DNA from: Clostridia bacterium | GTDB lineage: Bacteria; Bacillota; Clostridia; Oscillospirales; CAG-272 | Reading direction: 5' to 3' | Assembly: GCA_017547755.1 (NCBI GenBank) | Contig: JAFYOX010000062.1 | Span: 1 to 33,793 of the forward strand | DNA: 33,793 nt | Shown here: positions 1,090-33,104 of the stretch, piece by piece | How the letters are laid out: every line of letters begins with the position of its first letter | Numbering within the stretch: the first letter of the stretch is position 1 | Notes under the pieces: generated by a model | Told to the model about the DNA's origin: nothing | The model's input: only the letters and a program-made list of their open reading frames with translations | The model's database searches: none | Position numbers and translations under genes: made by a program

Positions 1090-1986
1090 CTAATCCAGCA
1101 GTGCCGACAGCTTCTTCAGTTCGTCTGCCTGTGCCGCGTCAAAACTTCCGTCGGGATAGATGATGATGTCGATCGTCAGCGAACACGGGACTTCCCGCAG
1201 CCGCCGGATGTAGTCCGCGAGGTATGCCGCATCCCGCTTCACGCCCGGTCTGCACCACGAATTCCATTCCGTTCCGTCCGGTGATAAACCGAGCGGTGCA
1301 AGAATGTGGACCTGTGCGCCGCCCGCAAACTGCGTTTCCGGGATCACCGTGAAGTCGTTGTATTCGCCGCAGGTGAATTCTTCCCGGCTGAACCGCTTTG
1401 TCGGACCGTCGGCAGGAACGCCGCCGTTCATCGCAACGATGCAGTCCGGATTTCCGGCCTTGCACGCATCATAATACGGTGCCAGCAGTTTGTCGTTGTA
1501 GCCGAAATAATCGTAGCAGCCGTCGATCCACCATCCTTTGACCAGGTCTCCGTAGCGGATGCTGTATTCACGGAGAACCGCCGCCCATTTTTCAACGAAA
1601 TCCATCGAAACATTCTGCCGCGGTGCCGTGAAGCCGAACCGCTTCCCGATCACTTCGTCGATGTGCGGACCGTCGCCGGTGTAGTAGAGATACAGATCGA
1701 TCCCGTATTTCTTCAGTTCCAGCCCGAGTTCCATCGGGATGTCGCGGACCGCGCACGCTTCGCCCGGCACCGTTCCGGCGATCCGGTCATAGGTTTCGTT
1801 CGGCGCGAGCATATATTTCGTGCCCTGCATCAGCGTGATCACATAGCGCGACGCGCCGGTTTCCGCAATATTTTTCGCCAGACGGGGAATATCCAGCGTA
1901 TTTGTCGTCTTTACCCAGTTCTCATCCCCGTATAAATAATGATTGAACAGCCCGAATTTCCCGTTCAATAACCGTTCCGCACCCAT
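1090..1986 (-). CDS. GH29-like (alpha-L-fucosidase superfamily) hydrolase
   Basis: A 298-residue cytoplasmic protein without signal peptide. The fold signature resembles GH29 fucosidases: N-terminal GKFGLFNHYLYGDENW (compare KFGIFIHWG), a strand with SRYVITLMQGTKYML where fucosidases have the RYVVLTAKHHDGF region, the helix and strand ELKKYGIDLYLYYTG, and VKGWWIDGCYDYFGY where GH29 has its nucleophile strand IWFDG. Asp in WWID is the candidate nucleophile. It is shorter than full GH29 enzymes (about 430-600 residues), lacking C-terminal beta domains, so true fucosidase activity is uncertain. The start chosen is Met at 1986, which follows GAGGAGG. A longer frame back to 2034 has no ribosome site. 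It lies downstream of a solute-binding lipoprotein on the same strand, suggesting a joint role in glycan use. Confidence 0.7.
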   Translation of the reverse strand: MGAERLLNGKFGLFNHYLYGDENWVKTTNTLDIPRLAKNIAETGASRYVITLMQGTKYMLAPNETYDRIAGTVPGEACAVRDIPMELGLELKKYGIDLYLYYTGDGPHIDEVIGKRFGFTAPRQNVSMDFVEKWAAVLREYSIRYGDLVKGWWIDGCYDYFGYNDKLLAPYYDACKAGNPDCIVAMNGGVPADGPTKRFSREEFTCGEYNDFTVIPETQFAGGAQVHILAPLGLSPDGTEWNSWCRPGVKRDAAYLADYIRRLREVPCSLTIDIIIYPDGSFDAAQADELKKLSALLD

Positions 1987-2040: not shown

Positions 2041-2120
2041 AAAAGTTTTTGAAGATGGGTCGAGACTTCCTTTGGAAGTCTCAGGGGGAAGGAACTTTTT
2101 TTAAAAAAGTTCCTTCCCCG
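2041..2120 (+). repeat. Dispersed palindromic repeat, copy 1 (half-unit)
   Basis: The tail AAAAGTTTTTGAAGATGGG (2041-2059) leads to an inserted extra hairpin (GAGACTTCC/GGAAGTCTC, about 2062-2082) and the terminal palindrome at 2085-2119 (GGGGAAGGAACTTTTT with its complement). It separates the solute-binding protein from the GH29-like gene. It may act as a partial terminator or mRNA 3'-end stabiliser, but lacks a following T tract outside the stem. Confidence 0.75.
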
Positions 2121-3771: not shown

Positions 3772-3860
3772 CTGCACAGACTTGATCCCCCTTTTTCAGT
3801 CGAAAGCTTTTTGAAAGAGGGTTTGGGAGAAAACTTTTTCTCGAAAAAGTCTTCTCCCAA
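3772..3860 (+). repeat. Dispersed palindromic repeat, copy 2 (half-unit)
   Basis: A CTGCAC box (3772-3777), a spacer, the tail GCTTTTTGAAAGAGGGTT and the palindrome 3823-3860 (TTGGGAGAAAACTTTTTC and its near complement). The palindrome starts 8 nt past the clpX stop on the minus strand, so it probably serves as the 3' hairpin of the clpX mRNA. Confidence 0.75.
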
Positions 3861-5173: not shown

Positions 5174-5201
5174 ATGGATACCTTTCTGAATGTGTGTTGA
5201 T

Positions 5202-5422
5202 CGGGAAAACCTTTTTGCAAAAAGGTTTTCCCGAACCCTTTTCAAAAAACTTCAAACGGTTGTATATACAGAGTGAGTGCAGATTGTCAGTTCCAAAGGA
5301 TTTTGTAAGCTGCACGAAATCGGGGAATCCCCGGATCTGTACCAGCCCTTGTCAGCACAATCGTCTGAAAGTTTTTGAAAAGGGGTTTGGGGAAAAACTT
5401 TTTTCAAAAAGTTTTTCCCCAA
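5202..5422. repeat. Composite inverted-repeat element between clpP and clpX (copies 3a and 3b)
   Basis: Two half-units of the dispersed family face each other. The left palindrome is 5202-5233 (CGGGAAAACCTTTTT and complement) with its tail at 5234-5262 in minus orientation. The right tail is about 5359-5386 with palindrome 5387-5422 (TTGGGGAAAAACTTTTTT and complement) in plus orientation. The tails match as inverted repeats over about 30 nt (ACAACCGTTTGAAG... against ACAATCGTCTGAAAG...). Inside are boxes GTGCAG (5277-5282) and CTGCAC (5310-5315) and a perfect 13-nt palindrome CGGGGAATCCCCG (5321-5333). The architecture is that of a MITE-like element with palindromic ends. No target-site duplication could be fixed by eye. 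Confidence 0.75.
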
Positions 5423-5432
5423 GCGCATCCCC

Positions 5433-14528: not shown

Positions 14529-14558
14529 TTGACAAAGCATAAAATCATCCTTTATAAT
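14529..14558 (+). promoter_or_regulatory. Sigma-A promoter of the SGNH hydrolase and GNAT genes
   Basis: Perfect -35 TTGACA (14529-14534) and perfect -10 TATAAT (14553-14558), 18 nt apart. Transcription should start near 14565, so the whole repeat copy 4 lies in the 5' UTR. Confidence 0.8.
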
Positions 14559-14579: not shown

Positions 14580-14663
14580 CTGCACGAATTTTGTCTGTCC
14601 GTTTGCTGAAAAGTTTTTGAAGAGGGGTTCGGGGAGGAACTTTTTTCAAAAAGTTCCTCCCCG
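14580..14663 (+). repeat. Dispersed palindromic repeat, copy 4 (half-unit, in a 5' UTR)
   Basis: A CTGCAC box (14580-14585), a spacer, the tail GAAAAGTTTTTGAAGAGGGG (14607-14626) and the palindrome 14630-14663 (CGGGGAGGAACTTTTTT and complement). It ends 13 nt before the SGNH start codon and so forms a stable hairpin next to the translation start. Confidence 0.8.
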
Positions 14664-14676
14664 AGAAAAAATCACC

Positions 14677-26198: not shown

Positions 26199-28457
26199 TT
26201 ATTCCTGTAAAAAATGCTTCAGCATGGTGCAGCGGATCGTGTGGCGGTTGTTGGCGATCATCTGCTGGAGGACGGACGGTTTTCCGACGAGGATGACCAT
26301 TTTCGACGCACGCGTCACGGCGGTGTACAGCAGGTTCCGCGAGAGGAGCATCGGCGCGCAGGAGTACAGCGGCAGGATCACGACGGGATATTCGCTTCCC
26401 TGACTTTTGTGCACCGTGATGGCGTAGGCATGATCCACTTCTTCCAGCTGGGCGGCGTCGAGCACGCAGATGCGTTCATCGAACGCGACGGTCACGAGGT
26501 TGTCCTCGCGGTCAATGTCCGTCACAACGCCGATATCGCCGTTGTAGACCCCCACGCCGGTCTTGCCGTCGTCGGTCTCCCATTCGATTTCGTAATTGTT
26601 CTTCGTCTGCATGACACGGTCCCCGACGCGGAAGATCACGTCGCGGGATTTTCTTTCGGCTTTGCCCGGTGCGCGCGGATTCAGGGCTTCCTGCAGACCC
26701 GCGTTGAGGATATCCGTTCCCGACAGCCCTTTTCTGGAAGGCGTCAGTACCTGGATCTTTGAGACGATGTCCGCGCCGTACGAGCGCGGCAGGCGGTTCT
26801 GCACAAGGTCGATCACCGTTGCGGAGATGGCTTCCTCGCTTTCGCGGCGGAGGTAGAAGAAATCCGCGTCGGTGCGCGAGGTATCGGGCAGTTCGCCCGC
26901 ATTGATGCGGTGCGCGTTCGTGATGATCAGGCTCTGTTCGGACTGACGGAAGATTTCGGTCAGCCGGATGACGGGGAACGCTCCCGATTCGATGAGGTCG
27001 CCGAGGACGTTTCCGGCACCGACGGACGGAAGCTGGTCGCTGTCCCCGATGAGGATCAGTCTGGCGCCGTTTTTGATCGCTTTCAGAAGGGCTTCCATGA
27101 GCTGTACGTCGATCATGGACGCTTCGTCGATGATGATGACGTCCGCGTCAAGGGTATTGTTTTCGTCGCGGAGGAACTTCGAGCCGTTTTCGTCGGAGAA
27201 GTCCATTTCCAGCAGACGGTGGATGGTCTTTGCTTCGTGGGAGGTCGCTTCGCTCATCCGCTTGGCGGCGCGTCCGGTCGGTGCGGCGAGGGAGATTTCA
27301 TAGTCAAGGGATCCGAAAATCGAGATCAGCCCTTTGATAATGGTGGTTTTCCCGGTACCGGGACCGCCGGTCAGGATCATGACGCCGTCCGCCAATGCCT
27401 GCGAGAGCGCTTTTTTCTGCATGACGGCGTAGGTGATGCCGCTTTTTGCTTCGGAGGATTCGATCATGCGCATACTGTCACGGGCGTTCATTTTCGGACA
27501 GCGCTCGTGGATCTGCCGGAGCTTTTTCGCAATATAGGTCTCCGCGCGGTACATATAGGGATCGAACAGATAACGCGTTCCGCCGACGTCCAGAGGCACG
27601 AGAGACAGCTTCAGCACCGCTTTTTCGATACATTCCGCGACTTTTTCGGCGTAGTTCGTGTCACCGCCGAAGAGAAGATCCACGGCGCACCGCAGAAGTT
27701 CGCTGTCGGGGATGCACGTGTGACCCGAACGGACGGCTTCCTGACGCAGAACGTACACGAGACCGTGCATGATACGGTCGTCGGAATCGGAGGCGAGCCC
27801 CATTCCCATGGCGATCCGGTCGGCACGGCTGAAGCTGATGCCGCGGAAGTCCTCGCACAGCCGGTAGGGATTGTTCCGGATCCGGTCGACGGCGGCGCCT
27901 CCCCATTTCTGGTAGATCTTCATGGCGGTCTGCGGCGTGAAATAATCACGGCAGAACATCATGACCGAGCGTGCGCCGGACATGGATTTGAAGCTTTCGG
28001 TGATGGTTTCGGCTTTCTTTTTTGTGATTCCGGGGATCTCGCTGAGCCATTCGGGGTGATTTTCGATGACGGAAAAGGTGTCCGTACCGAACTGTTCAAC
28101 GAGTTTCTGTGCGGTTTTCGGACCGATGCCCTTGATGTTGCCGCCCGAGAGGTAGCGGAGAATGTCGCTTTCCTCGGCGGGAAGGGTCTTTTCATAGGAA
28201 TCGGCTTTGAACTGCCGGCCATAGACCGGATGATTCGTCCAGGTTCCGTGTGCGGTGATTTTGTCACCTTCGGCGAGGTAGGGAATGATGCCGACGACGG
28301 TCACGGGCTCTCCGGCGGAGTCTTCGATTTCACACACGGTGTAGCCGGATTCCTCGCTTTGGTAGATGATGGAATCGACGATGCCGGAGACGGAATCCTC
28401 CGGTTCGGCGGATGCGGCGGATGACAGGATGGGTTCCTGCGGATAAAAATTATTCAA
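26199..28457 (-). CDS. recD2: ATP-dependent 5'-3' DNA helicase RecD2 (RecD-like, YrrC)
   Basis: A 752-residue SF1B helicase of the RecD2 type, which occurs without RecBC and is linked to DNA repair and fork processing. An OB-like N-terminus (GIVDSIIYQSEESGYTVCEIE) is followed by helix-hairpin-helix repeats (GGNIKGIGPKTAQKLVEQFG, WLSEIPGITKKKAE). Helicase motifs: I GGPGTGKT (364-371), Ia LAAPTGRAAKR, II IIIDEASMID, III ILIGDSDQLPSVGAGN, IV TEIFRQ, V AYAITVHKSQGSEYP, VI LYTAVTRASK. Length is normal. The start codon is TTG at 28457, backed by CGGAG about 10 nt upstream and the promoter. Expressed alone, divergently from solute-binding protein 3. Confidence 0.95.
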   Translation of the reverse strand: MNNFYPQEPILSSAASAEPEDSVSGIVDSIIYQSEESGYTVCEIEDSAGEPVTVVGIIPYLAEGDKITAHGTWTNHPVYGRQFKADSYEKTLPAEESDILRYLSGGNIKGIGPKTAQKLVEQFGTDTFSVIENHPEWLSEIPGITKKKAETITESFKSMSGARSVMMFCRDYFTPQTAMKIYQKWGGAAVDRIRNNPYRLCEDFRGISFSRADRIAMGMGLASDSDDRIMHGLVYVLRQEAVRSGHTCIPDSELLRCAVDLLFGGDTNYAEKVAECIEKAVLKLSLVPLDVGGTRYLFDPYMYRAETYIAKKLRQIHERCPKMNARDSMRMIESSEAKSGITYAVMQKKALSQALADGVMILTGGPGTGKTTIIKGLISIFGSLDYEISLAAPTGRAAKRMSEATSHEAKTIHRLLEMDFSDENGSKFLRDENNTLDADVIIIDEASMIDVQLMEALLKAIKNGARLILIGDSDQLPSVGAGNVLGDLIESGAFPVIRLTEIFRQSEQSLIITNAHRINAGELPDTSRTDADFFYLRRESEEAISATVIDLVQNRLPRSYGADIVSKIQVLTPSRKGLSGTDILNAGLQEALNPRAPGKAERKSRDVIFRVGDRVMQTKNNYEIEWETDDGKTGVGVYNGDIGVVTDIDREDNLVTVAFDERICVLDAAQLEEVDHAYAITVHKSQGSEYPVVILPLYSCAPMLLSRNLLYTAVTRASKMVILVGKPSVLQQMIANNRHTIRCTMLKHFLQE

Positions 28458-28503
28458 CGGTATGTTCTCCGTGGGATTTTTGGATACAGATTCTTACAAT
28501 CAT

Positions 28504-28532
28504 ATTATACCCGGTCGGGCATGGTTTGTCAA
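28504..28532 (-). promoter_or_regulatory. Sigma-A promoter of recD2
   Basis: On the minus strand perfect -35 TTGACA (28527-28532) and perfect -10 TATAAT (28504-28509), 17 nt apart; leader about 40 nt. Confidence 0.85.
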
Positions 28533-28586
28533 CGAAAAAAGGAGTGTGGGCAAATCGCCGGAATTTGGTGTTTTTGTGAAACACGA

Positions 28587-30258: not shown

Positions 30259-30295
30259 GTTCTGTCAAATCAAATATTGTTTTGCTGGATTTTTT

Positions 30296-30524
30296 GAGGG
30301 AAACCTTTTCAGAGGAAAGGTTTCCCTCAAACTCCCTTCCAAACCTCTTTGATCTGTTACAGTGATTTTGACTGTGCAGATTTTTTCTTTTGAAAAAAAC
30401 CTTCCAACCTCAAATCTGCACAGACACAGCGATCTGTAACAGCCCAAAGAGGTTTGGAAGGGATTTTCTGCGACTTTCGCAGAAAGCTTCCGAGGGGAAC
30501 CTTTCCTCTGAAAAGGTTCCCCTC
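30296..30524. repeat. Composite inverted-repeat element between SBP3 and metK
   Basis: Nested inverted repeats. Outer palindromes: 30296-30328 (GAGGGAAACCTT and complement) and 30492-30524 (GAGGGGAACCTT type). Next, 29-nt arms 30334-30362 and 30434-30462 are inverted repeats with 27 matches. Inner boxes CTGTGCAGATTT (30372-30383) and AAATCTGCACAG (30412-30423) are perfect 12-nt inverted repeats. An extra hairpin TTTCTGCGA/TCGCAGAAA is inserted at 30465-30485 on the right arm only. The head-to-head arrangement is the same as at 5202-5422. It lies at the convergent ends of SBP3 and metK, where no ordinary terminator is seen, so the palindromes may provide 3' ends. Confidence 0.8.
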
Positions 30525-30560
30525 AGGAATCTGCACAAACAAAATTTGATAGAAAGAAAC

Positions 30561-31745: not shown

Positions 31746-31818
31746 TTTTAATCTCCTTTTTGATTCTCGTGAAAAGGGAATGGGCGGATACGCTGAGTTT
31801 TAACGGACGCTGTTTCAC

Positions 31819-31852: not shown

Positions 31853-31869
31853 GAGTTTTTCCGTATTTC

Positions 31870-31957
31870 CTTATCTGTCGGGAATTAGCACCTTGCTGCA
31901 TTTTCGCGGTAGGTTGCCGGGCGTCACAGAGCCTGTCTCTCAGCCACTCTTGATAAG
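31870..31957 (-). promoter_or_regulatory. SAM-I (S-box) riboswitch aptamer
   Basis: On the minus strand the S-box consensus is clear: P1 CTTATC/GATAAG, AAGAGTGGCTGAGAGAC (K-turn and P2), GCCCGGCAACC, and GGTGCTAATTCCC. It lies upstream of metK and before the terminator at 31819. SAM binding represses metK. Confidence 0.95.
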
Positions 31958-31981
31958 TCTTTTCTTTGTTTTACGGGTATT

Positions 31982-32822: not shown

Positions 32823-32862
32823 TACGCATAACGTACGGAACATACCATGTACCGTCACACAT

Positions 32863-32969
32863 TTTCTCTCATCCGGACTTTGACCGTCGGTACGGGAATC
32901 ACACCCGTTCGGCCCGCATACGCAGGTTCGTGGACTATACCACCGGTAAGGAATTACGCCTATCCCTGA
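32863..32969 (-). promoter_or_regulatory. FMN riboswitch (RFN element)
   Basis: On the minus strand the RFN consensus runs CAGGGATAGGCG, AATTCCTTACCGGTGGTA, GTCCACGAAC, GATTCCCGTACCGACGGT, AAAGTCCGGATGAGAGA. FMN binding should terminate transcription before the S-component gene. The aptamer begins only about 24 nt after the palindrome of repeat copy 5. Confidence 0.95.
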
Positions 32970-32992
32970 AAATTTTTATTGAATTGGGTTTC

Positions 32993-33104
32993 TTGGGGGA
33001 ACCTTTTTTGAGGAAAAAGGTTCCCCCAAACCCCTTCCCAAAACCTTTTCAAATAAAAAGGTGAGACAAAATTCTGTGCAGAGCTGTTTGAATTTCAGCT
33101 GCAC
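32993..33104 (-). repeat. Dispersed palindromic repeat, copy 5 (half-unit)
   Basis: The palindrome 32993-33029 (TTGGGGGAACCTTTTTT and complement), then tail ACCCCTTCCCAAAACCTTTTC to about 33052 in minus orientation, then boxes CTGTGCAG (33074-33081) and CTGCAC (33099-33104). It lies between tuf and the FMN riboswitch, on the same transcript direction as both. Confidence 0.75.

What the first reader, a model, noticed from the sequence alone, without database searches (positions are those of the whole stretch)
30296..30524. Dispersed MITE-like repeat family with palindromic ends, seen best in two head-to-head composites
Direct reading finds six loci sharing one plan: CTGCAC box, T/A-rich tail ending AAAAGGGGTT, and a terminal palindrome of GGGGAAC...GTTCCCC type (2041-2120, 3772-3860, 5202-5422, 14580-14663, 30296-30524, 32993-33104). 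At 5202-5422 and 30296-30524 two half-units face each other, with 29-nt arms at the latter matching in 27 places. The arms differ in sequence between loci yet keep pairing, which suggests selection on structure or copying of whole units. Extra hairpins are inserted between tail and palindrome in copy 1 and in the right arm at 30296. No transposase is present here, so a non-autonomous element is the natural reading. I do not know a named family that matches.
Basis: partly seen in the sequence, partly recalled or inferred. Interest (0 to 1): 0.78.

Follow-up and report, generated by a model that had tools for sequence, protein, structure and literature searches.

The report
Folding repeats with mirror-image tails
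The window's palindromic repeats belong to a large non-coding repeat family that has multiplied in three sister gut bacteria, and the tail of each hairpin tends to be a mirror image of its own stem, a pattern expected if the DNA can fold into a three-stranded structure.

Summary
A hairpin-only pattern gives 166 matches in this genome, 336 and 382 in two sister MAGs, and 0-15 in the 22 other congeners searched. The unit is a hairpin (G-rich base, T/A-rich top) plus a tail; facing units bound an interior, giving elements of mostly 0.18-0.69 kb. 30296-30524 reads as an internally deleted copy. In sister G004 whole 664-692-nt elements recur in unrelated flanks (16 compared, mostly 80-92% identical). 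No conserved ORF was seen, no target-site duplication in 27 elements, and Y1 transposase genes do not track the family. So 'MITE-like' is partly right.

New: the tail mirrors its own hairpin arm (GGGGAACC-TTTT with CCCCTTCC-AAAA) and covaries with it (0 of 5000 permutations; arms with interior A 31 of 40 against 9 of 82; own hairpin beats the partner's 24 to 7 with 10 ties). This fits triad rules for an intrastrand DNA triplex that changes strand midway. Triplex formation is inferred, not shown; the small non-Clostridia set gave little or no signal. Units often follow stop codons; the consensus scan does not see them as terminators. Closest known: BoxC/PIT/TM triplex repeats, REP/BIME mosaics, MITEs.

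The parts
2041..2120 (-). Single unit: tail 2041-2059, inserted mini-hairpin about 2062-2082, hairpin about 2085-2119
   Evidence: Read; site occupied in G004 and G217, each with a different hairpin/junction
3803..3860 (-). Single unit: hairpin 3823-3860, tail to its left (CCCTCTTTC on the - strand)
   Evidence: same unit in G217; in G004 the contig start there lies in a 0.67-kb-type element
5201..5254 (+). Left unit (hairpin + tail) of a 222-230-nt class element
   Evidence: fold z -10.2 for 5196-5425
5367..5422 (-). Right unit of the same element; hairpin GGGGAAAAAC-TTTT, tail CCCCTTTTC-AAAA on the - strand
   Evidence: orthologous element in G004, and its two ends on two contig ends in G217
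14609..14664 (-). Single unit between a TTGACA-18-TATAAT promoter match (14529-14558) and the start of a GDSL lipase-like ORF; empty in G217
30295..30350 (+). Left unit: hairpin 30295-30328 and tail
30351..30444 (.). Short interior with GTGCAGATTT/AAATCTGCAC inverted boxes; reads as the two ends of a 0.7-kb element joined (internal deletion)
   Evidence: Reading against the 0.7-kb element in L042
30445..30525 (-). Right unit: tail, inserted mini-hairpin about 30466-30486, hairpin 30492-30525, just 3' of metK
   Evidence: site occupied in G004 (674 nt) and G217
32993..33049 (+). Unit (hairpin + tail) 16 nt upstream of the FMN riboswitch match (32977-32857, -)
   Evidence: same unit with changed arm and kept pairing in G004

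Best explanation
These are non-coding fold-back repeats that multiplied in one small clade of gut Clostridia. The unit is a hairpin with a G-rich base followed by a tail that is the mirror image of the hairpin's own arm; facing units bound an interior that is often itself palindromic. SHOWN here: many copies, copying of whole 0.66-0.69 kb elements in one sister genome, the fold-back design, mirror covariation of tail and arm in Clostridia, sharing of sites between sister species with a few gains or losses, no conserved ORF, no target-site duplication. INFERRED: (1) when a strand is single (replication, transcription) the unit folds into a hairpin whose tail lies in the major groove, an intrastrand triplex that uses the purines of one arm in the lower half and of the other arm in the upper half; on the strand that reads tail-then-hairpin the triads would be G.G-C and A.A-T (or T.A-T) below and T.A-T above; (2) the family spreads through a single-stranded DNA route by an enzyme not yet found, and copies then lose interior parts; (3) copies persist mainly just after stop codons because they do least harm there.
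For: Copy numbers 166/336/382 against 0-15 in 22 congeners. Whole-element copies: 16 of 664-692 nt in unrelated flanks; 30 G004 matches longer than 600 of 673 query bases, 78-92% identical besides the query itself. Rod-like fold of a 680-nt element, z -24, 20 shuffles. Mirror covariation: tail-free detection, both sides, z 4.7 (G000), 3.4 (G004), 5.0 (other Clostridia); tail sides, 46 distinct cores, z 9.0, 0 of 5000; out of sample, 9 distinct arms, 0 of 5000; interior-A arms 31 of 40 against 9 of 82, Fisher 3e-13, one vote per purine run 12 of 19 against 0 of 15; own hairpin against the partner's, 24 to 7, 10 ties. Triads on 47 cores: G to C 200 of 214, A to T 109 of 141, T to A 205 of 212. 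Compensating changes: 12 of 48 predicted pairs in 12 aligned elements, and at the orthologous 5196 site.
Against: No structure was measured. Related copies are not independent, so the permutation odds are too strong; the one-vote test is the most cautious. The 'reverse' control also rises (z 5.0, 0 of 5000; z 4.6-4.7 in the G000 and other-Clostridia subsets). Other phyla gave no signal with both sides scored (z 0.3, n 19) and a weak one on tail sides (z 2.7, n 10). The excess of canonical triads over permuted tails is modest (0.870 against a permuted maximum of 0.850; 0.950 against 0.931). Tail sides were picked by C-run and A-run, and a few picked sides are not true tails. No mobilising enzyme was found. 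In G004 a facing pair at the metK leader encloses what looks like ordinary leader sequence, so not every pair is one copied element. PMC4666352 reports that E. coli triplex motifs were not seen to fold in vivo by DMS.
Confidence: 0.55

Rival explanations
1. They are mRNA 3'-end elements (terminators of an unusual kind or barriers to exonucleases), kept by selection at gene ends.
For: The hairpin side faces a gene 3' end in 29 of 49 intergenic units of G000 (6 a 5' end, 14 no ORF end within 400 nt), 37 of 64 in G004 (13, 14) and 4 of 7 in G217 (1, 2), at a median of 15, 21 and 7 nt. Sites are shared between sister species.
Against: The consensus terminator scan overlaps only one of the six loci (32986-33004, part of one arm), with one further call just beside 3772. 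One unit lies between a promoter match and a start codon, one element lies directly upstream of clpX, and in G004 a pair lies in the metK leader. 21 of the 24 other genus genomes have 0-3 such hairpins. Expression was not measured.
Confidence: 0.2
2. The mirror relation is not a triplex signal but a by-product of few founder units copied together with their tails, plus shared base composition.
For: Units are copied and related; the reverse-order control also rises; other phyla show little or no signal.
Against: One vote per distinct purine run still gives 12 of 19 against 0 of 15; genomes not used to find the pattern show it (9 arms); within one element each tail fits its own hairpin better than the partner's.
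Confidence: 0.3
3. Classical MITE: terminal inverted repeats moved by a DDE transposase in trans.
For: Non-coding, inverted-repeat ends, whole-element copies, internally deleted forms.
Against: No target-site duplication: own flanks 3.44, swapped flanks 3.38 on average, 736 of 2000 permutations as high (27 elements). DDE transposase families were not searched genome-wide.
Confidence: 0.12
4. REP/BIME-type repeats moved by a RAYT (Y1) transposase.
For: One Y1_Tnp gene in the genome; mosaic palindromes next to gene ends resemble BIMEs.
Against: No GTAG or CGTC tag at the unit ends, by reading. The only Y1_Tnp gene lies beside a different, GTAG-type repeat, and no family hairpin was found in its 3.3-kb locus. 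G217, with the most copies, has no Y1_Tnp match and G008, with four, has three hairpin matches; these genomes are incomplete (73-90%).
Confidence: 0.08

Closest known systems
Intrastrand triplex repeats: BoxC / PIT elements / TM_ECO (PMC4666352; read: abstract, introduction, about half of methods, two of four parts of results, first part of discussion, and find passages)
   Same: Dispersed intergenic repeats, numbers differing strongly between related genomes, able on paper to fold one strand into a triplex; no transposase tied to them; linked there to genomic instability.
   Different: Those motifs are homopurine stems with loops of 1-6 nt. Ours is a hairpin whose purines change strand midway, with a covarying mirror tail, built into 0.2-0.7 kb fold-back elements.
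Recurrent G-rich/C-rich repeats of Methanomicrobiaceae (PMC8044849; find passages read)
   Same: Intergenic repeats that can form a hairpin with a third strand.
   Different: Antiparallel G-rich third strand and G-quadruplex competition; no strand switch is described in the passages read.
REP / BIME / REPIN repeats and RAYT (PMC3733652; find passages read)
   Same: Short palindromes in mosaics, often next to gene ends.
   Different: No GTAG/CGTC tag, no linked RAYT; larger units; tail in mirror order.
MITEs (general knowledge; short definition in PMC4666352)
   Same: Non-coding, inverted-repeat ends, dispersed, internally deleted forms.
   Different: No target-site duplication; the ends are themselves hairpins; no partner transposase found.

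Membership tests
MITE | Dispersed non-coding element with terminal inverted repeats | tested here: met
MITE | Target-site duplication | tested here: not met
   27 elements, own 3.44 against swapped 3.38, 736 of 2000 permutations as high
MITE | Autonomous partner with the same ends | not tested
REP/BIME (RAYT) | GTAG or CGTC tag at one end of the palindrome | tested here: not met
   By reading the unit ends
REP/BIME (RAYT) | Linked RAYT gene | tested here: not met
   genomes incomplete
Intrastrand triplex motif (TM/PIT) | Three stems obeying triad rules in one strand | tested here: met
   Triad table and covariation tests, with a strand switch and a skipped position that the published class definitions do not contain
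Intrastrand triplex motif (TM/PIT) | Homopurine stem with loops of 1-6 nt (published search rule) | tested here: not met
   Stems are purine then pyrimidine, and the lower half is closed by the upper stem
Intrastrand triplex motif (TM/PIT) | Triplex measured in vitro | not testable with these tools
   Needs CD, NMR or chemical probing
Intrinsic terminator | GC-rich hairpin followed by a U-tract | tested here: not met
   Of six loci only 32993 overlaps a call, covering part of one arm; one call lies beside 3772

The most novel reading that the evidence does not exclude
A general bacterial DNA device: a hairpin with a purine/pyrimidine switch and a covarying mirror tail that folds as an alternate-strand intrastrand triplex, present with the same layout in other Clostridia and, in single matches, in Desulfovibrionaceae, a Methanocella MAG and others, and used in one gut clade as the recognition end of self-spreading fold-back elements moved through single-stranded DNA.
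Probability: 0.3. Interest if true: 0.85.

Novelty: new variant of a known kind. Interest (0 to 1): 0.62.

Why it matters
Covariation is the standard sequence evidence for two-strand pairing in nucleic acids; covariation in mirror order would be the matching evidence for a third strand, and selection on natural DNA triplexes has been hard to show. Three sister genomes hold hundreds of natural variants with which to test it. The family is also a candidate new type of mobile fold-back repeat whose enzyme is unknown.

Tried and rejected
Rejected or weak: ordinary terminators; RAYT mobilisation; target-site duplication (an 8-nt match, AAAATCAC, on both sides of the 14578 unit was seen by eye and not credited, since swapped flanks give matches of up to 10); coding content; a known RNA family (best E 0.0024, below that family's gathering score; two riboswitches and a tRNA in the window, none at the units); phages, plasmids and viral contigs (no match); Watson-Crick re-pairing of tail with hairpin (direct and 3'-arm-copy relations z 1.2 and 2.2; up to 3.2 in the G004 subset); the tail being set by the opposite tail. 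An inversion of window 26211-28550 in G004 begins beside a 673-nt element; one case proves nothing. Literature: six searches listed no paper on alternate-strand intrastrand triplex repeats in bacteria or on this repeat; only open PMC text is held, and apart from three papers only listings were seen. The original PIT papers were not read; they are known here through PMC4666352. Alternate-strand triplex recognition is recalled from general knowledge.

Full report
OBSERVATION. The six loci are real. The repeat finder gives 34-nt arms at 30295-30328/30492-30525 (94%) and paired tails 30329-30362/30434-30467 (91%). As single-stranded DNA 5196-5425 and 30285-30535 fold with z -10.2 and -14.5.

SCALE. 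The 251-nt region gives 85 BLAST matches in its own genome (117 contigs, 3.05 Mb, 74.8% complete) at E up to 10, strands and fragments counted apart, and 62 at E up to 0.001 in congener G004. A pattern for the hairpin alone, silent about the tail, gives 166 matches in G000 (overlaps counted), 336 in G004, 382 in G217, 15 in G216 and 0-3 in the other 21 of 25 genus genomes. In a class-wide draw of 196 genomes including G000 it gives 0-1 in 194 and 11 in one of the same order. G004 is the MAG titled Oscillospiraceae bacterium SIG618 and G217 the MAG titled Clostridia bacterium RGIG1778 (goat cecum), judged from matching contig lengths only. An exact hairpin-plus-part-of-tail pattern hits 76 stretches in GTDB genomes, 59 of them titled Oscillospiraceae or Clostridia; the other 17 include Desulfovibrionaceae and a Methanocella MAG, with much the same layout. 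Some of the 17 may be misbinned: the Methanocorpusculum hit reads like the G004 element. That pattern contains part of the tail, so it does not test the tail.

ANATOMY. Unit: hairpin with G-rich base and T/A-rich top, then a tail. Outer lengths of facing pairs fall in classes: 183, 222-230, 419, 575-605 and 664-692 nt (values of 33-38 there are the two sides of one hairpin, and single values of 119, 1216 and 3806 also occur). In G004 18 elements of 575-692 nt were compared: the 16 of 664-692 nt are mostly 80-92% identical in pairs (one, L052, 73-79%) in unrelated flanks; the two of 575 and 605 nt share 87%. A 680-nt element folds as one rod (z -24, 20 shuffles). The longest ORFs differ from copy to copy. 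30296-30524 reads as the left end of the 0.7-kb type joined to the right end, an internal deletion by reading. Mini-hairpins at the hairpin/tail junction (about 2062-2082 and 30466-30486) recur elsewhere.

MIRROR TAIL. In one search the tail was seen to follow its own hairpin: GGGGAACC-TTTTT with CCCCTTCC-AAAAA; GGGGAAAAC with CCCCTTTC; GGGGAAAAAC with CCCCTTTTC; GAGGGGAACC with CTCCCTTCC; GGGGGAAACTTCTT with CCCCTTTCAAGAAC. This is mirror order (parallel complement), which Watson-Crick templating does not make. Tests. (a) Hairpins found without the tail, both sides scored, distinct arms: mirror z 4.7 (G000, n 114), 3.4 (G004, n 33), 5.0 (other Clostridia, n 52), 0.3 (other phyla, n 19: no signal); the control relations reach at most 2.9. 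(b) Tail sides only (picked by a C-run and an A-run): 46 distinct cores, mirror 8.55 against 6.99, z 9.0, 0 of 5000; direct z 1.2, 3'-arm copy z 2.2, but reverse z 5.0, so composition contributes; other phyla z 2.7, 39 of 5000, n 10. (c) Out of sample: 20 hairpin loci in other genomes taken by the hairpin pattern, 16 with a C-rich and A-rich side, 9 distinct arms: mirror 0 of 5000, other relations 129-1279 of 5000. (d) Arms with an A inside the G run: 31 of 40 tails have an interruption, against 9 of 82 with plain arms (Fisher 3e-13); one vote per purine run 12 of 19 against 0 of 15 (p 1.4e-4); two ambiguous rows of 124 set aside, and a few rows are sides that are not true tails. (e) Inside one element each tail fits its own hairpin better than its partner's in 24, worse in 7, tied in 10 of 41 pairs (p 0.003); of 29 distinct arm combinations 21, 4 and 4 (p 9e-4). 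Triads on 47 cores: G to C 200 of 214, A to T 109 of 141, T to A 205 of 212, switch C to C 42 of 58; canonical fractions 0.870 and 0.950 against maxima of 0.850 and 0.931 in 300 permutations; arm and tail lengths correlate (rho 0.50, p 3e-4), the tail one shorter in 26 of 47. By reading, in eight rows (L064, L072, L077, L113, L168, L173, L188, L200) the tail has A rather than T at the interior position; the opposite strand then reads T over an A-T pair, which PMC4666352 lists among purine-motif triads. So on the strand reading tail then hairpin most positions fit a known triad, with a strand change at the switch. The same paper says purine-motif triplexes do not form in RNA, so the fit points to DNA.

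HISTORY. 2013: occupied in G004 and G217. 3766: occupied in G217; in G004 one contig starts inside a 0.67-kb-type element there. 5196: occupied in G004; in G217 its two ends lie at two contig ends; left arms GGGAAAACC (G000), GGGGAAACC (G004), GGGGAAAAC (G217) with tails CCCTTTTC, CCCCTTCC, CCCCTTTC. 14578: occupied in G004, empty in G217. 3' of metK: occupied in G004 (674 nt) and G217, whose MetK is 95% identical (over 121 aa in G217). 32993: occupied in G004, G217 not examined. By reading, no unit of this family lies in the 420 nt (340 in one) 3' of MetK in the 18 other congener loci printed. The reverse case: at the metK leader (window 31746-31817, no hairpin) G004 has two facing units around a stretch resembling the G000 leader. 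So most window copies predate the split of these species while arms and interiors keep changing, by compensating mutation or by exchange between copies, which these data do not separate; gains or losses do occur. Twelve aligned elements of the 0.22-kb class have 12 of 48 predicted pairs with changes on both sides. Target-site duplication: none above swapped flanks in 27 elements; complementarity of the flanks slightly raised (38 of 2000).

PLACE. The hairpin side faces a gene 3' end in 29 of 49 intergenic units of G000 (6 a 5' end, 14 no ORF end within 400 nt), 37 of 64 in G004 (13, 14), 4 of 7 in G217 (1, 2), at medians of 15, 21 and 7 nt. 17 of 66, 31 of 95 and 1 of 8 units fell inside mechanically called ORFs and were left out; some of those ORFs may be spurious. 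The consensus scan does not see the units as terminators. One unit lies between a promoter match and a start codon, and one element lies directly upstream of clpX.

VERDICT. A real, lineage-specific family of fold-back repeats: MITE-like in dispersal but without target duplication, not REP by tag or RAYT, with a mirror-tail covariation in Clostridia that makes a strand-switching intrastrand DNA triplex the leading explanation of the unit. The triplex itself, the moving enzyme and any benefit to the host are unproven.

Noticed in passing
L031 (G000:C89), palindromes about 1285-1309 and 1394-1418, ORF 1459-1959 (-): A Y1-type (RAYT-like) transposase gene (Pfam Y1_Tnp, 23.6 bits, cut-off 23) beside two facing GTAGGGGCGATTC...GAATCGCCC palindromes: a different repeat family.
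   Followed up: partly
L065:5123, L114:4099, and 3' of MetK in G007 (L213): A second, unrelated hairpin (GTTCTTTTTCTCC...GGAGAAAAAGAAC) is followed by CAAAAAGAGGAAC, again near mirror order (mirror score 10): hairpin plus mirror tail may be a wider device.
   Followed up: no
window 31746-31817; L207:2703-2873: In G004 two facing units lie between the SAM riboswitch and the metK start, around a stretch resembling the G000 leader, which has no hairpin.
   Followed up: partly
window 26211-28550; L122:1294-5515: This stretch is inverted in G004, with an extra ORF beside it, and the inversion begins next to a 673-nt element.
   Followed up: partly
G161, L283-L288: A genome of the same order has 11 pattern matches of another type (GGGGGAGACCC arms) with tail CCCCCTCACTAAAAC.
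   Followed up: partly
L173:1281-1512 (G000_C22 row): A tail-plus-arm stretch is duplicated in tandem inside one unit, as if by slippage at the hairpin.
   Followed up: no
window 32857-32977 (-) and 31868-31959 (-): FMN riboswitch upstream of an ECF riboflavin-type transporter gene and SAM riboswitch upstream of metK.
   Followed up: no
G000 contigs C1, C55, C59, C68, C103: Several contigs of this MAG begin within or near a copy, so the repeat probably breaks the assembly and copies are undercounted.
   Followed up: no
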